A stretch of DNA of 64,000 nt. Origin: Streptomyces sp. NBC_01314. GTDB taxonomy: Bacteria > Actinomycetota > Actinomycetes > Streptomycetales > Streptomycetaceae. The notes beneath the pieces were generated by a model. The model had not been told where the DNA came from. It worked only from the letters and a program-made list of their open reading frames with translations, and ran no database searches. Positions 28,023-33,495 of the stretch are shown here, one piece after another. The position numbers and the translations under genes were made by a program. The stretch lies in assembly GCF_041435215.1 (NCBI RefSeq), contig NZ_CP108394.1, positions 6,262,001-6,326,000 of the forward strand. The letters run 5' to 3'. Each line of letters opens with the position of its first letter. The first letter of the stretch is position 1.

Positions 28023-28165
28023 GCGATGACCGGCTCACCACCGATGAACGCGCCGAACTCGCCGCGCTGCGCAAGGAGAATGCCCAGCTCAAGCGGGCGA
28101 ACGAGGTTCTGCGGACGGCCTCGGCGTTTTTCGCGGCGCAGCTCGACCCGACCCGGCCCAGGTGA
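28023..28165 (+). pseudogene. IS3-family orfA, 3' remnant
   Basis: In frame up to TGA 28163-28165 it reads DRLTTDERAELAALRKENAQ, then LKRANEVLRTASAFFAAQLD. This is the leucine-zipper end of IS3-family orfA. The helix-turn-helix half and the left inverted repeat are missing. The stop overlaps the orfB start by four bases (GTGA), the usual IS3 arrangement. Confidence 0.85.
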
Positions 28166-28797
28166 CGGCGCTCGTTGACGAGCATCCCAGCCTGGGGGTC
28201 GAGTGCGTACTCCGGGAACTTTCCATCGCCTCCTCGACGTACTACCGCTGGCGTCGTGCCGAGCGCGAGCCGTGCGAGCGCGTCCGCCAGGACGCGGAGC
28301 TGACCGAGCGGATCCGGCAGATCCACGCAGATTCGGGCGGGATCTACGGCTCGCCGCGCGTCCACGCGTCCTTGAAGCGCGAAGGCGTGCACGTGGGCCG
28401 CAAACGGGTCGAGCGCTTGATGCGCGAGGCCGACATCGCGGGCGTCAGCCCGCGCCGGGGCAGCTTCACGCGCCGCGATCCCAAGGCCACGCTCGCCCCG
28501 GACCTGGTCGAACGCGACTTCACGGCGCCCGCGCCGAACCGGCTGTGGGTCACCGACCTCACGATGATCGCAACCAGCGAGGGACTCCTTGAACCTGAGC
28601 AGTACACGTCTGTGAAGCTGACAACTCGCTTGGTGCGGGCGGGAGTTCACGCGTCCATGGGGTCGGTCGGGGACTCGTACGACAACGCTCTCGCGGAGAA
28701 TTTGTGGATGCTGATCAAGACGGAGTGCATCCGCGGCCGCGTCTTCGCCACCCGGGCCGAGGTGAACCTCGCGCTCTTCGAGTACATCGACGGCTTC
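28162..28797 (+). pseudogene. IS3-family transposase orfB, 5' part, with internal deletion
   Basis: From GTG 28162 it shows the HTH_21 region (YGSPRVHASLKREGVHVGRK) and the rve integrase start (RLWVTDLTMIAT). The sequence then jumps from TSEGLLEPE to QYTSVKLTTRLVRAG, missing about 45 residues that hold the second catalytic Asp. The third acidic residue (DNALAENLWMLIKTE) remains. The gene is therefore dead. At 28797, after EYIDGF, coding is interrupted by the group II intron at 28798; the missing end, YNSRRIQKRLGYLSPVEFEE, resumes at 33364. Confidence 0.9.
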
Positions 28798-29404
28798 GTG
28801 CGCCACGAGGCGCTGCATGACGTGCGGGGATGAAAGGACCCTGCCTCCGCTCAGTCGCAGCTGGGCGGAGTAGCTGAGGACAGTCCGACCCGGGAGACGC
28901 CGGTGAGGATGGAGAGCAGTCCTGACAACGACGGGACGGCCTGGCACTGCCAGACAGGTCGGGTCCGGCAAGCGATACGGAGAGGTGTACGCGAGGAACC
29001 GATGGTGTAAAGCCCCGTAAGCGATGTGCCGGCTCAAATCTGGTGGATATGGGCCGGGGTGCAGCGCGTGGCCGTTCTGGTTCGCCAGGAGCGGTCAACT
29101 CAGAAGCCGACCGGATCCGTCGGTGGTGAGGCCAGTGGGAAAGCCTGCGGCATACCGCTGGCGATGCTGCCGGGGCAAAGTCGGACGCCTCCTTCGTGAA
29201 ACGTCGTGCAGTGAACGTGGGAACCATCCGTGGTCGCCCGAACTCCGCGAAGCCATCGCGGAGATGGGCAGGCCCGTCGTCGGCTGATGGCCACGGGTGG
29301 GGCGGAGGCCCCGTAGTAGTCCGAGCGCGGGAAAGCCGCGCACATGGCGAAGGGGGCCAGCAATTCAGCAGCGGAAGAACTGGAATGTCAGGAGGATGTC
29401 GTTG

Positions 29405-29531
29405 GTGAATACCGACGAGTTGGAGCACGCCTTATTTCAGGCGGAGCGCCGGGTACTGAAGATCCAGACCAAGCTGCACTGTTGGGCGACCGATGATTCT
29501 CACCGTCGGTTCGATGATCTGTTCAACCTTG
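29405..29531 (+). pseudogene. outer-intron reverse transcriptase, 5' part
   Basis: GTG 29405 follows AGGAGG (29390-29395) at 9-base spacing and begins MNTDELEHALFQAERRVLKI, then RRFDDLFNL, the standard N-terminus of group II intron RTs. Coding stops at 29531, where the inner intron enters within a Val codon. With the part at 31934-33234 it would give a 475-aa protein; removal of the inner RNA is needed for translation. Confidence 0.85.
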
Positions 29532-30064
29532 CTGCGCCACGAAAGCGCTCTGTTATATCCCCGGTTAAGCCGGGAGGAACTCGGAGGGATGTTCCTGGGT
29601 CCGATGGCTAACCTGAATCCGAAAGGTGCAGGGAACAATAGCATGCCAGAAAAGTAACGCTCGCGTTCAGGCATATGAAGCGAGGCGTTGCGGGACCCGT
29701 GCGATACGGATAAAGCTTGATTGCCTAGACCTCAATCTCCAGAAGGTGCAAGAACACGCCCGCCGGAAATAGTGCCTGATACCGGCGCCACACCCTGTAT
29801 CGGCATCACGAGGTGGCTGATACATCCTCCGGGATGTGGAGCGATGCCCAACGAGGGCATTCAAGGAGATGAATGAGGATCCTAAGTCGCACTATCACGT
29901 ATGACAGAGACGAACGTGGGATCACCTAAGGGGCGCGAGCCCTACGGTGACAGAGGCCCCGTAGTAGTCGTAGGAGTAACGCCCTACCGAGGGGGACGGG
30001 AAGGCCGTCCGCAGGGCCAAGGGGGCCAGGTGATCGGGTATTCGAAGACTGGGAGGTATGCGTA

Positions 30065-31828
30065 ATGCAGAGCGCCGAAACAGTACTGAGTATCCTCCGT
30101 GATCGCGGTAGGCGTGGCCTGCCGTGCAATGAAATGTTCCGACAACTGTTCAATCCGCAGATGTATCTGATGGCCTACGGGCGCCTGTACTCCAACCATG
30201 GAGCCATGACGCCTGGGGTCGATGGAGAAACCGCAGACGGCATGTCGCTGGCAAAGATTGAACGCATCATCGACGCCCTGCGTCACGAGCGGTTTCGGTT
30301 TAAGCCAGCAAAACGGATCTACATCCCGAAGAAGAATGGGAAGCAGAGGCCGCTCGGCTTGCCTTCGTGGTCGGATAAGCTCGTCGGTGAAGTGGTCCGC
30401 CTCTTGCTGGAGGCGTACTATGAGCCGCGGTTTTCTGACCGTTCACACGGTTTCCGTCCCGGCAAGGGCTGTCACACTGCACTCAGCGAAGTGGCGGACC
30501 TTTGGACTGGCACGGCATGGTTCATTGAGGGTGATATATCAGACTGCTTTGGAAGCCTTGACCGCGAGGTCATGCTCTCGATGCTGGCTGAGAAAATCCA
30601 CGACAACCGGCTCCTCCGGCTGATCGAACAGATGCTACAAGCCGGATATCTGGAGGATTGGGTATGGAACGAAACGCTCAGTGGAGCCCCACAGGGCGGT
30701 GTCGTTTCGCCGATCCTTTCCAATATTTACTTGGACCGGCTGGACAAGTTCATCGAAACAGTTCTGATACCGCAGTACACCAGAGGAGCTAGCAGGGCCA
30801 ACAACCCTGCCTACGCAAGGGTACGAATGGCGGCGGTGCGCGCTCGAAAACGCGGCAATGTAACCGCAGCACGCGAGTTGCGTAAACAGCTACGGGGAAC
30901 GTCCAGCAAGGATCCTCAGGATCCGGGCTACAGGCGACTCCGCTACTGCCGGTACGCCGACGACACCCTCCTCGGATTCGCCGGACCGAAGGTCGAAGCT
31001 GAGGAAATCAAGCAGCGTCTGGCACAGTTCCTTCGAGACGAACTCAAGTTGGAACTGAACCCGGACAAGACGCTGGTTACGCAAGCCCGTACCCGGGCAG
31101 CGTCTTTCCTTGGCTACGAGATCACTGTCCAGCACAGCGCGACCCGCCCGTCTGTTAACGGCAGCGTCGCTCTGCGCGTCCCACGACAAGTGATCAAATC
31201 CAAGTGTGTCCCCTACCTGAAGCACGGAAAACCCGAGCGCCGCACCGAGCTGTTCAACCGTGACGACCTCACGATCATCAGCACATACGGAGCGGAATAT
31301 AGGGGTCTCGTCCAGTACTACCTGCTGGCCGGTGACGTCTGGAGACTGAGCCGGCTGAAATGGGTCGCACAGACCTCCATGCTCAAGACGCTTGCCGCCA
31401 AGCACCGTTCGACGGTGTCGGCGATGGCCCGCAAGTACAGGGCCAAGATCTCGACACCAGATGGACCACGGACATGCTACGAGGCCAGCATTCAACGAGC
31501 AGGCAGGAAACCACTGGTCGGAAGGTTCGGCGAAATCCCGCTGAAACGGCAGAAGAAGGCGGTACTACAAGACCGCCCGGTAGTCCGACCCGTTGCCCGC
31601 AAAGAGCTGATTACACGGCTCCGCCTGGGCAAGTGTGAACTGTGTGAGCAGATAGACCAAGTGGAAGTCCACCAGGTCCGAAAGCTCGCCGATCTCACCG
31701 AGTCCGGACGACCACAGCCCCCGTGGGCACAACACATGGCAAAGAAGCGGAGAAAAACCCTCGTGGTCTGCACCCGCTGTCATGAGGCCATCCATACGGG
31801 GCAACCCACCGCGCAATTCACGGAGTAG
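30065..31828 (+). CDS. ltrA: group II intron RT-maturase-HNH protein (inner intron)
   Basis: 587 aa from ATG 30065, with GGGAGG upstream. RT domains run about 30-330: NHGAMTPGVDGETADGMS, KRIYIPKKNGKQRPLGLPSW, HGFRPGKGCHTAL, SGAPQGGVVSPILSNIYLD and the catalytic YADD in CRYADDTLLGF near residue 300. A maturase (X) region follows (YYLLAGDVWRLSRLKWVAQ). The C-terminus carries an HNH endonuclease: CELCEQIDQVEVHQV near 520 and CTRCHEAIHTG near 570. The protein should splice its intron RNA and copy it into new DNA sites. The frame is intact, so the element may be active or recently so. Lower GC and different codon use from the host genes support recent arrival. Confidence 0.92.
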   Translation: MQSAETVLSILRDRGRRGLPCNEMFRQLFNPQMYLMAYGRLYSNHGAMTPGVDGETADGMSLAKIERIIDALRHERFRFKPAKRIYIPKKNGKQRPLGLPSWSDKLVGEVVRLLLEAYYEPRFSDRSHGFRPGKGCHTALSEVADLWTGTAWFIEGDISDCFGSLDREVMLSMLAEKIHDNRLLRLIEQMLQAGYLEDWVWNETLSGAPQGGVVSPILSNIYLDRLDKFIETVLIPQYTRGASRANNPAYARVRMAAVRARKRGNVTAARELRKQLRGTSSKDPQDPGYRRLRYCRYADDTLLGFAGPKVEAEEIKQRLAQFLRDELKLELNPDKTLVTQARTRAASFLGYEITVQHSATRPSVNGSVALRVPRQVIKSKCVPYLKHGKPERRTELFNRDDLTIISTYGAEYRGLVQYYLLAGDVWRLSRLKWVAQTSMLKTLAAKHRSTVSAMARKYRAKISTPDGPRTCYEASIQRAGRKPLVGRFGEIPLKRQKKAVLQDRPVVRPVARKELITRLRLGKCELCEQIDQVEVHQVRKLADLTESGRPQPPWAQHMAKKRRKTLVVCTRCHEAIHTGQPTAQFTE

Positions 31829-31834
31829 TCGCTG

Positions 31835-31870
31835 GAGAGCTACGTGCACCGAAAGGTGCCCGCGTGGTTC
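31835..31870 (+). ncRNA. domain V of the inner group II intron
   Basis: A short hairpin with the AGC triad, a CACC-GAAA-GGTG tetraloop tip, a small internal bulge and a lower stem (AGCTACG with CGTGGTT). It is the catalytic core of the ribozyme, placed just after the RT stop as usual. Confidence 0.82.
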
Positions 31871-31933
31871 GGACCGGGGGCCGCTGGAGCAGGACCGTGG
31901 TAACACGGCACCTCGCCAGCGGCCTACCGGTGT

Positions 31934-33234
31934 TCGCCGATCCCGCTTTCCTGTTGGTCGCGTGGGACCGGGTGCGGGGGAACAAGGGAGCCAAGACGGC
32001 CGGGATCGACGGGCGCACTGCTTCGTCGATCGCATTGTCGGTTGGGGTCGATGAATTTGTCGACCGGGTGCGGGTCTCGCTCAGGGACCGCACTTTCCAG
32101 CCGATGCCGGTGCGGGAGCGGATGATCCCCAAGACGGGCGGCAAGTGGCGTCGTCTGGGGATCGCGACGATCACCGACCGGGTCGTGCAGGCATCTCTGA
32201 AACTGGTGTTGGAGCCGATTTTCGAGGCGGATTTCCTCCCGTGTTCTTACGGGTTTCGCCCGAACCGTCGGGCTCACGACGCGATAGCCGAGATCCGCCA
32301 CCTCACCTCCCACTCCTACGAGTGGATCGTGGAGGGCGATATCAAAGCCTGCTTCGACGAGATCTCGCACCCCGCTCTGTTGGACCGGGTGCGTCTTCGG
32401 ATCGAAGACAAACGCGTCCTTGCCCTGGTCAAGGCGTTCCTCAAGGCGGGCATCCTCGGAGAGGATCGCGTGCTGAGGGAGAACAACGCCGGTACCCCCC
32501 AGGGTTCGATCCTTTCACCGTTGCTCAGCAATGTGGCCCTCTCAGTCCTCGACGAGTTCATCGCCGACGGTCCGGGCGGTCCCTCGCTGACCAACGGCCG
32601 CAGGGCCAAGCGCCGGGCCCAAGGTCTGCCGAACTACCGTATTTCAAGGTACGCGGACGACTGGTGCCTGATGGTCTCGGGCACTCGGGCACACGCCGAG
32701 ACTCTGCGCGATGAGATCGCCGCAGTTCTGAGCACGATGGGGTTGCGGCTTTCCGAGGAGAAGACCCTGATCACTCATATCGACGACGGCCTCGACTTCC
32801 TCGGCTGGCACATCCAGCGCCACCGCAAGCGAGGTACGGACAAGCACTACGTCTACAACTACCCGGCCAAGAAGTCTCTGACCTCGATCACCGGAAAGAT
32901 CCGGACGTTGTGCCGACAGTCAACGCACCTGGAGTTCGATCACCTGTTGTACCAGCTCAACTCGGTGCTGCGGGGCTGGACCACGTACTTCCGAGCGGGG
33001 GTTTCCTCCGTCACGTTCTACTACCTGCACGCCTTCCTCTGGAAACGCGTCTGGTATTGGCTGCGGAGAAAGCACCCCCGCGCGACTTGGAAGGAATTGC
33101 GCCGCCGCTACTGCGGGGGCGGATGGTGGCCCAGCGGCCAGAAGGCAGTCCTCTTCGATCCGGAGAAAGTCACCACGCAGTGGTACCGCTTCCGAGGAAC
33201 GAAGATCCCAAGCCCATGGCCGATCACCGGATGA
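31934..33234 (+). pseudogene. ltrA: outer-intron reverse transcriptase, 3' part
   Basis: Resumes as ADPAFLLVAWDRVRGNKGAK. RT motifs follow: KWRRLGIATITDRVVQASL, YGFRPNRRAHDAI, NNAGTPQGSILSPLLSNVAL and the active site SRYADDWCLM. A GIIM maturase domain covers the end (LNSVLRGWTTYFRAG, RYCGGGWWPSGQKAVLF). There is no HNH. An ATG or GTG near 31864 opens a 456-aa frame, but its first ~24 codons are inner-intron RNA, so a free-standing protein would lack RT-0. Together with 29405-29531 it makes a 475-aa enzyme. Confidence 0.87.
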
Positions 33235-33264
33235 GAAGAAGAACACGTCCCATCAGGACCTGTG

Positions 33265-33300
33265 GAGCGCCGGATGCGTTGAAAGGCGCACGTCCGGTGC
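33265..33300 (+). ncRNA. domain V of the outer group II intron
   Basis: Begins GAGCGCCGGATGCG, carries the AGC triad and a GAAA-containing tip, and closes with CACGTCCGGTGC; the CGGA and TCCG arms pair. It lies 63 bases before the intron's 3' end, with domain VI between. Confidence 0.85.
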
Positions 33301-33363
33301 GGGAAGCGGTTCGGGGAAACCTCTGGTGGAAACATCAGCATGGCGCCCCGGACCGACTTTCAC

Positions 33364-33495
33364 TATAACTCCCGGCGCATCCAGAAACGCCTCGGCTACC
33401 TCAGCCCGGTCGAGTTCGAGGAGAAGCACTACGCCGACCAGGCAACGGCCGAACGAACGAACCTGAAACCCCGTCAACCCGCCCTGACCAGCTGA
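33364..33495 (+). pseudogene. IS3-family orfB, 3' exon and element end
   Basis: Continues the transposase as YNSRRIQKRLGYLSPVEFEE, then KHYADQATAERTN and stop at 33493-33495. It follows directly from residue EYIDGF at 28797 once the intron is removed. GGGGGAACCTCA at about 33516-33527 fits the right inverted repeat of such elements. Confidence 0.88.

What the first reader, a model, noticed from the sequence alone, without database searches (positions are those of the whole stretch)
28798..33363. Nested group II introns (twintron) inside a dead IS3 transposase
Two reverse-transcriptase frames lie one after the other, but they belong to two introns, one inside the other. The outer starts GTGCGCC and ends CAC; its removal restores the IS3 transposase (EYIDGF to YNSRRIQKRLGYL). 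The outer RT begins at 29405 as MNTDELEHALF...RRFDDLFNL, breaks at 29531 and resumes at 31934 as ADPAFLLVAWDRV. The inner insertion (29532-31933) has its own intact RT-maturase-HNH protein, its own domain V and a bulged-A domain VI. Both introns share TGCGCCACGA at their 5' ends and a 17-base identity in their RNA. Splicing must go inner first, then outer, to give the outer maturase. Bacterial twintrons are rare, and a related intron sitting inside its relative's maturase gene inside an IS is a three-layer nest.
Basis: partly seen in the sequence, partly recalled or inferred. Interest (0 to 1): 0.88.

Follow-up and report, generated by a model that had tools for sequence, protein, structure and literature searches.

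The report
Nested introns with switched splice ends
A mobile self-splicing intron sits inside another intron's gene inside a broken jumping gene, and the inner intron's two ends carry an unusual matched set of letters that most of its relatives lack, which offers a natural test of how such introns recognise their own ends.

Summary
The nest is real. A complete group II intron (29532-31933) interrupts the maturase frame of a second group II intron (28798-33363), which interrupts an IS3 transposase remnant. Relatives not interrupted at this site read [FYH]NL[VC][AC]DP across the proposed join. A second copy lies elsewhere in the genome; Streptomyces SM1 and Embleya hold similar inner introns (RT 96%, DNA 92.9%) at the same site in more diverged outer introns. 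Bacterial twintrons are known, so the nest alone is a new member of a known kind.

Of 93 introns of its family collected, all 11 C-starters with a detectable end finish in GU; none of 66 G-starters does. The J2/3 gamma base switches G to A as the last base switches C to U. Exon pairings and one exact empty site fix the boundaries. The RT tree rejects one C-starting clade (p-AU 3e-5), so the block changed, either way, at least twice. Non-G starters lie inside group II introns in 8 of 13 cases, G-starters in 3 of 80 (kinship not corrected). U-starting introns with penultimate G are in print; I found no C-starting one. No splicing was measured.

The parts
28162..28797 (+). IS3-family transposase, 5' part (5' exon of the outer intron); about 50 aa missing relative to L018
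   Evidence: NCBIfam transpos_IS3 180.2 bits; residues 1-212 align to L018 1-262
28798..29531 (+). outer group II intron, 5' part, starts GTGCGCC; the frame of its RT begins at GTG 29405
   Evidence: sequence; relatives
29304..29304 (+). outer J2/3 gamma base (G), partner of the final C at 33363
   Evidence: placed by eye by alignment with the inner J2/3; inferred
29405..29531 (+). outer RT, N-terminal piece (...FNL)
29520..29524 (+). IBS2 of the inner intron (TGTTC)
29526..29531 (+). IBS1 of the inner intron (ACCTTG)
29532..31933 (+). inner group II intron, starts CTGCG, ends GT, 2402 nt
29634..29634 (+). inner intron position 103: A in 10 of 12 C-starting introns, 1 of 80 G-starting
29752..29756 (+). 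EBS2 (GAACA), pairs with 29520-29524
29808..29808 (+). delta (A), pairs with 3' exon +1 (T 31934)
29809..29814 (+). EBS1 (CGAGGT), pairs with 29526-29531 (one G-U)
29952..29952 (+). inner J2/3 gamma base (A), partner of final U 31933
30065..31828 (+). inner intron-encoded RT-maturase-HNH protein, 587 aa
31835..31933 (+). inner domains V and VI; bulged A at 31926; last two bases GT
   Evidence: position of the A read
31934..33234 (+). outer RT, C-terminal piece
33265..33363 (+). outer domains V and VI, ends AC
33364..33495 (+). IS3 transposase, 3' exon to its stop codon
   Evidence: read; matches

Best explanation
Shown by sequence: a complete, LtrA-like group II intron lies exactly at a conserved TGTTCAACCTYG|T site in the maturase frame of a different group II intron, itself in an IS3 transposase remnant. 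Inferred: the inner ribonucleoprotein recognises the outer intron's DNA by EBS2-IBS2, EBS1-IBS1 and delta-delta' pairing and retrohomes there. Because it sits in the outer intron's ORF, the outer RNA can probably still fold, but the outer maturase frame is whole only in transcripts from which the inner intron has been removed. The inner intron's terminal bases have switched as a block: first base G to C, penultimate A to G, last C to U with gamma G to A. I read this as a working alternative splice-end code in which the known contact of first and penultimate base becomes a C-G pair (pairing inferred, not shown). The same block changed, by gain or loss, more than once in the family.
For: Nest and join. 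Boundaries: EBS1/IBS1 Watson-Crick score of 10 C-starting introns is 5.2 of 6 at this boundary, 1.7 and 1.9 when shifted by one; delta pairs with the first 3' exon base in 9 of 11 C-starting introns with an end; the L016 flanks join as GGGCCG|GGATGCAGTACGCGG, identical to the uninterrupted intron L012 of the window's own genome; L023 reads D-S-T-H-V-L-A-A-V-R across its join (by eye). Ends: C-starting 11 of 11 detected end GT; G-starting 66 detected: AC 56, GC 5, TC 3, GG 1, GA 1. Gamma: A in 11 of 12 C-starting, G in 79 of 80 G-starting. More than one change: best tree needs 3, well-supported branches force 2, one clade rejected p-AU 2.95e-05. Recent mobility: the inner DNA is 92.9% identical in L015 while three aligned parts of its outer are 73.4, 75.6 and 65.8%; inner RT 96% in L021, outer 72% on both sides of the junction; own second copy has 0 differences in 2402 inner bases and different IS3 flanks.
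Against: No transcript, splicing or mobility data. Four G-starting introns (L026, L028, L036, L047) have penultimate G and three have penultimate U, so first and penultimate bases do not covary strictly. The tree is of the RT protein; RNA ends could have been exchanged. L142 (C-starting) has lost its J2/3 and L119 its domain V/VI end; delta does not pair in L142 and L097. The loci are mostly the closest relatives of this RT, not a random sample.
Confidence: 0.85

Rival explanations
1. The C start and GU end are decay: the inner introns are dead copies with mutated splice sites.
For: Some family members are plainly decayed (L142, L119).
Against: The same block occurs in 11 of 11 C-starting introns with a detectable end, with the gamma change in 10 of them and pairings kept to different targets. 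An RT stretch over 380 aa without a stop was kept for 10 of 12 C-starting introns, and L015 has a 583-aa ORF. Copies elsewhere are 92.9-100% identical to the window's inner intron.
Confidence: 0.06
2. The true first base is the exon G before the C (intron GCUGCG...), or the C is exon.
For: In 9 of 12 C-starting introns the base before C is G.
Against: EBS1-IBS1 pairing fails when shifted by one either way; the L012 empty site allows only C...GT; L050, L119 and L097 have T, T and C before the C.
Confidence: 0.04
3. The nest is an ordinary chance insertion; both introns are now baggage of a dead IS and the boundary bases have no functional link with nesting.
For: The host IS3 gene is broken; three G-starting introns with AC ends also sit inside group II introns (L045, L070, L085); C-starting introns also occur outside group II introns (L023, L024 and others).
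Against: The same nest site is occupied in outer introns of three organisms (window, L021, L015), and a second outer site, in domain I, is used by four more introns (L016, L025, L031, L142).
Confidence: 0.4

Closest known systems
Thermosynechococcus elongatus twintrons, TeI3 introns inside the ORF start of TeI4 introns (PMC2882425, passages read)
   Same: one group II intron family homes into a conserved site in the ORF of another; inner copies more alike than outer ones
   Different: there the inner introns lack an ORF; here the inner carries its own RT-maturase-HNH and noncanonical ends
Trichodesmium Tery_4732 twintron (PMC4649490, passages read)
   Same: [quoted passage not shown]
   Different: there the inner interrupts domain I and sequential splicing was shown; here the window's inner interrupts the outer ORF and nothing was measured (relatives L016, L025, L031, L142 use domain I)
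Methanosarcina acetivorans nested introns, Dai and Zimmerly 2003 (described in PMC4424553, passages read; the paper itself is not held)
   Same: [quoted passage not shown] the review also cites that paper in a list on altered exon recognition or altered termini, so unusual ends in nested introns may have a precedent that I could not see
   Different: archaeal host; nests of up to five
UHB.I2 of Halorhodospira halochloris, ends UUGCG...GU (PMC7923331, passages read)
   Same: bacterial intron with a first base other than G, penultimate G and last U
   Different: starts with U, is reported as one intron in an integron-like array; the passages read do not describe a lineage or a gamma change
SPAM3 mitochondrial intron, UUGCG...GC (PMC8208691, passages read) and plant UUGCG introns (PMC6867995, passages read)
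   Same: first base other than G; in SPAM3 also penultimate G
   Different: organellar, no ORF, starts with U; like the T-starting introns L037, L059 and L143 rather than the window's
RmInt1, 3' end CC (PMC4238363, passages read)
   Same: natural deviation at the penultimate base
   Different: no change of its first base came up in the passages read; there penultimate G and U mutants were the most impaired in the second step
LtrA (PDB 5g2x, search row only)
   Same: nearest solved relative of the inner RT, 361.7 bits; delta next to EBS1 as in IIA introns (recalled)
   Different: the Ll.LtrB intron starts with G (recalled)

Membership tests
group II intron (inner, 29532-31933) | domain V and VI with bulged A | tested here: met
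   RF00029 45.7 bits against gathering 40; helix search
group II intron (inner, 29532-31933) | domains I-III with EBS1, EBS2 and J2/3 | tested here: met
group II intron (inner, 29532-31933) | 5' end GUGYG (consensus, not a strict criterion: UUGCG and GGGCG introns are in print) | tested here: not met
   starts CUGCG
group II intron (inner, 29532-31933) | 3' end AY (consensus, not a strict criterion: RmInt1 ends CC) | tested here: not met
   ends GU
group II intron (inner, 29532-31933) | gamma-gamma' Watson-Crick pair | tested here: met
   A-U in the window; 10 of 11 C-starting introns with a detected end
group II intron (inner, 29532-31933) | RT-maturase protein | tested here: met
   NCBIfam TIGR04416 252.6 bits, below its cut-off of 300
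group II intron (outer) | GUGYG...AY ends, domain V/VI, RT | tested here: met
   TIGR04416 357.1 bits, cut-off 300
group IIA subclass (inner) | delta base directly 5' of EBS1 pairs with first 3' exon base | tested here: met
   40 of 53 Watson-Crick, all four pair types; subclass rule recalled
twintron | one group II intron inside another | tested here: met
twintron | sequential splicing | not testable with these tools
   no RNA data

The most novel reading that the evidence does not exclude
Group II introns that specialise in invading other group II introns have evolved a second, orthogonal splice-end code (C1 with penultimate G, gamma A with final U; perhaps U1 with penultimate G in another lineage), so that inner and outer introns nested in one transcript do not use each other's ends: a bacterial counterpart of the switch between GT-AG and AT-AC spliceosomal introns.
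Probability: 0.2. Interest if true: 0.87.

Novelty: new variant of a known kind. Interest (0 to 1): 0.55.

Why it matters
[quoted passage not shown] A natural lineage in which both bases, and gamma-gamma', have changed together and more than once makes that contact testable by comparison and by swap experiments. The loci also show intron-in-intron homing as a repeated habit in actinobacteria, and tools that insist on GUGYG...AY would misplace such introns.

Tried and rejected
the first 3'-end finder was wrong at the bulge and gave false ends; replaced; a 22-base C-start pattern over 392 genomes found nothing; the pattern does not fit the window's own sequence, so the result is not used; viral contigs gave 56 pattern stretches but no relative; 8 of 394 genomes of the class had a match (own genome included); no new C-start among the loci fetched. 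Rows dropped or distrusted: L045_49 (C), L123 (A), L071 and L077 (T) are offset artefacts; L115 'GG' is a misdetected end, L044 'GA' lies at a contig end, and the L143 G-row borrows the T-starting intron's end; 15 of 93 rows had no detected 3' end (14 G, 1 C). L015 and L142 are missing from the tree. Idea dropped: strict Watson-Crick covariation of first and penultimate base (G-starting introns with penultimate G or U exist). Idea kept only as the novel case: orthogonality as the reason for the switch; against it, G-starting introns L045, L070 and L085 with AC ends sit inside group II introns, and C-starting L023 and L024 do not. The excess of nesting among non-G introns (8 of 13 against 3 of 80, Fisher p 1.8e-6) is not corrected for kinship. 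The two own copies (inner 0 of 2402, outer 7 of 2164 differences, two of the 7 beside the IS insert) only weakly suggest separate insertion. Novelty lowered on checking: UUGCG...GU and UUGCG...GC introns are in print, so I cut interest from 0.62 to 0.55, the novel case from 0.22 to 0.20 and its interest from 0.88 to 0.87, and raised the third rival from 0.35 to 0.40.
Full report
What is there. The window holds an IS3-family transposase remnant (28162-28797 and 33364-33495) interrupted by a group II intron (28798-33363) whose RT frame is interrupted by a second group II intron (29532-31933). Rfam finds domain V/VI at 31835-31933 and 33265-33363. The inner ORF has RT, type II maturase and HNH domains; the outer right-hand piece has RT and GIIM domains. 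Against solved structures the inner RT is nearest to LtrA (361.7 bits) and the outer piece to 6me0 (189.3 bits); the two are 32% identical over 331 aa, so they are different lineages of group II intron, not close kin.

The join. Outer-type RTs not interrupted at this site read across it as FNLVADP (L017, L126), YNLVADP (L018), FNLVCDP (L082), HNLVCDP (L016, L140) or FNLCADP (L006/L011, L142), with DNA such as TTCAATCTCG|TTGCC. Several of these introns are interrupted elsewhere. The IS3 transposase itself lacks about 50 aa relative to L018 (residues 1-212 align to 1-262, 69.5%), so it stays dead after removal of the introns. For the outer family (11 rows) the best EBS1 candidate pairs with its own exon at 4.25 of 6 (next best 3.2) and the best EBS2 at 4.28 of 5 (next 3.06), with G-U counted 0.7.

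Copies. The window's genome has a second copy of the nest (G000:C1, L010): the inner intron has no difference in 2402 bases, the outer 7 differences in 2164, and the IS3 flanks differ; there the outer intron is also hit by a 1317-bp insert that encodes an IS3-like transposase (my reading of its frame). In Embleya sp. NBC_00888 (L015) the inner intron is 92.9% identical over 2402 bases and sits at the same site in an outer intron whose three aligned parts are 73.4, 75.6 and 65.8% identical. In Streptomyces sp. SM1 (L021) the inner RT is 96% identical and the outer 72% on both sides of the junction. Inner copies more alike than their hosts point to separate recent insertions, as reported for T. 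elongatus (PMC2882425, passages). A different site, in domain I of outer-type introns, is used by L016 (with its copy L140), L025, L031 and L142. The inner RT family is common: 41 of 392 genomes of the window's genus (own included) have a match at E 1e-100 or better, 8 of 394 of the class at 1e-150.

The boundary switch. Scanning the fetched loci with a profile of the 5' end gave 93 distinct introns of the inner family. They are mostly the closest relatives of this RT (80 kept of at least 553, others), not a random sample. Eighty start with G, twelve with C, one with T. Ends were set by the domain VI helix plus two bases, a rule blind to what those bases are. Of 78 introns with an end: C-starting 11 of 11 end GT; G-starting AC 56, GC 5 (one an artefact), TC 3, GG 1 (misdetected), GA 1 (contig end); T-starting GC 1. 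Fifteen of 93 had no end found. The J2/3 base at inner position 421 is A in 11 of 12 C-starting introns and G in 79 of 80 G-starting (the C-starting exception L142 has lost that stretch; the G-starting one is a gap). With the last base, this is an A-U for G-C exchange of the gamma-gamma' pair. An A-U gamma pair by itself is common in nature (PMC4238363, passages); the change of the first base to C with penultimate G is what I have not found described. Position 103 is A in 10 of 12 C-starting and 1 of 80 G-starting introns; it lies unpaired in domain I, contact unknown.

Why the boundaries are trusted. Scoring every position of the aligned 5' regions against each intron's own exon found one clear EBS1 (278-283, mean 4.87 of 6 over 85 members; next best 2.97) and one clear EBS2 (221-225, mean 4.11 of 5 over 84; next best 2.84). 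For the C-starting introns EBS1 pairs at 5.2 of 6 with the exon ending just before C, and at 1.7 or 1.9 when shifted one base (10 introns). The base before EBS1 pairs with the first 3' exon base in 40 of 53 introns, with all four Watson-Crick types, and in 9 of 11 C-starting introns with an end. RNAalifold of all 93 rows gives domains I-III with EBS1, EBS2, delta and gamma unpaired; helices are 89-100% paired against 26-50% when slid (the structure comes from the same alignment, which favours it). The uninterrupted intron L012 of the window's own genome equals the joined flanks of L016 over the stretch printed.

More than one change. In a careful RT tree of 34 rows (chosen by me from 85 usable rows; L015 and L142 were not usable), the ten C-starting rows need three changes of label, supported branches force two, and holding them in one clade is rejected (p-AU 2.95e-05). 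Changes may be gains or losses. C-starting L119 and G-starting L085 are sisters with full support. I named the group before building this tree, but after seeing the quick tree.

Nesting and unusual ends. Testing flanks against group II introns, 8 of 13 introns with a first base other than G lie inside one (one of them, L025, by its 5' flank only), against 3 of 80 G-starting (L070 by its 5' flank only; Fisher p 1.8e-6); kinship is not corrected for. The T-starting one of the 93 is L143, at position 183 of an inner-type intron. Three more T-starting introns lie outside the 93: L037, L059 and L126, at GGGC[CG]AAG|GG sites of inner-type or outer-type introns, ending GC, GC and AC. L022 seems to carry a T-type intron in a C-type intron in what looks like an IS1182 transposase (label recalled, no search), but both 5' ends are off the contig and only the RT kinship and the 3' ends speak for this. 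Against a simple rule, L045, L070 and L085 are G-starting introns with AC ends inside group II introns, and L023 and L024 are C-starting introns in what looks like the same transposase.

Literature. From searches and passages of PMC4424553, PMC4649490, PMC2882425, PMC4238363, PMC3669008, PMC8919778, PMC7161350, PMC6867995, PMC7923331 and PMC8208691: bacterial twintrons are known; GUGYG...AY is the rule; variations by subgroup are mentioned (PMC4238363); UUGCG...GU (one bacterial intron, PMC7923331), UUGCG...GC (one fungal intron, PMC8208691), UUGCG plant introns (PMC6867995) and GGGCG starts are in print. These U-starting cases with penultimate G fit the idea that first and penultimate base change together, and they also make unusual ends less novel. 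A search for CUGCG with group II intron found no paper; for CTGCG it listed four papers with unrelated titles, which I did not open. Dai and Zimmerly 2003, cited by the review for altered exon recognition or termini, is not held. Most subscription papers are not held, so absence here is weak evidence of novelty. The first-penultimate contact is from Chanfreau and Jacquier 1993 as cited in PMC4238363; the original was not seen.

Verdict. The nest is a good new example of a known kind. The concerted, recurrent switch of the inner intron's ends to C...GU is the new part, a new variant of a known kind.

Noticed in passing
L010 4886-6202 (reverse complement coordinates): In the second copy of the nest, domain I of the outer intron is interrupted by a 1317-bp insert encoding an IS3-like transposase (own reading of the frame).
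   Followed up: partly
L015 9537-11675: In Embleya the outer RT is broken a second time, by an insert that overlaps a serine-recombinase-like ORF (own reading of the sequence).
   Followed up: no
L037, L059, L126, L143: Introns starting TTGCG lie at conserved sites of other group II introns; ends GC (L037, L059, L143) or AC (L126).
   Followed up: partly
L045, L070, L041, L067: Introns inserted in domain V of other group II introns (L045 and L070 by flank matches; L041 as host and L067 by letters only).
   Followed up: partly
L022 1-4444: Apparent three-layer nest: T-type intron in C-type intron in an apparent IS1182 transposase, judged from 3' ends and RT kinship only.
   Followed up: partly
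inner intron position 103 (window 29634): Base linked to the C start (A in 10 of 12 against 1 of 80) without a known partner.
   Followed up: partly
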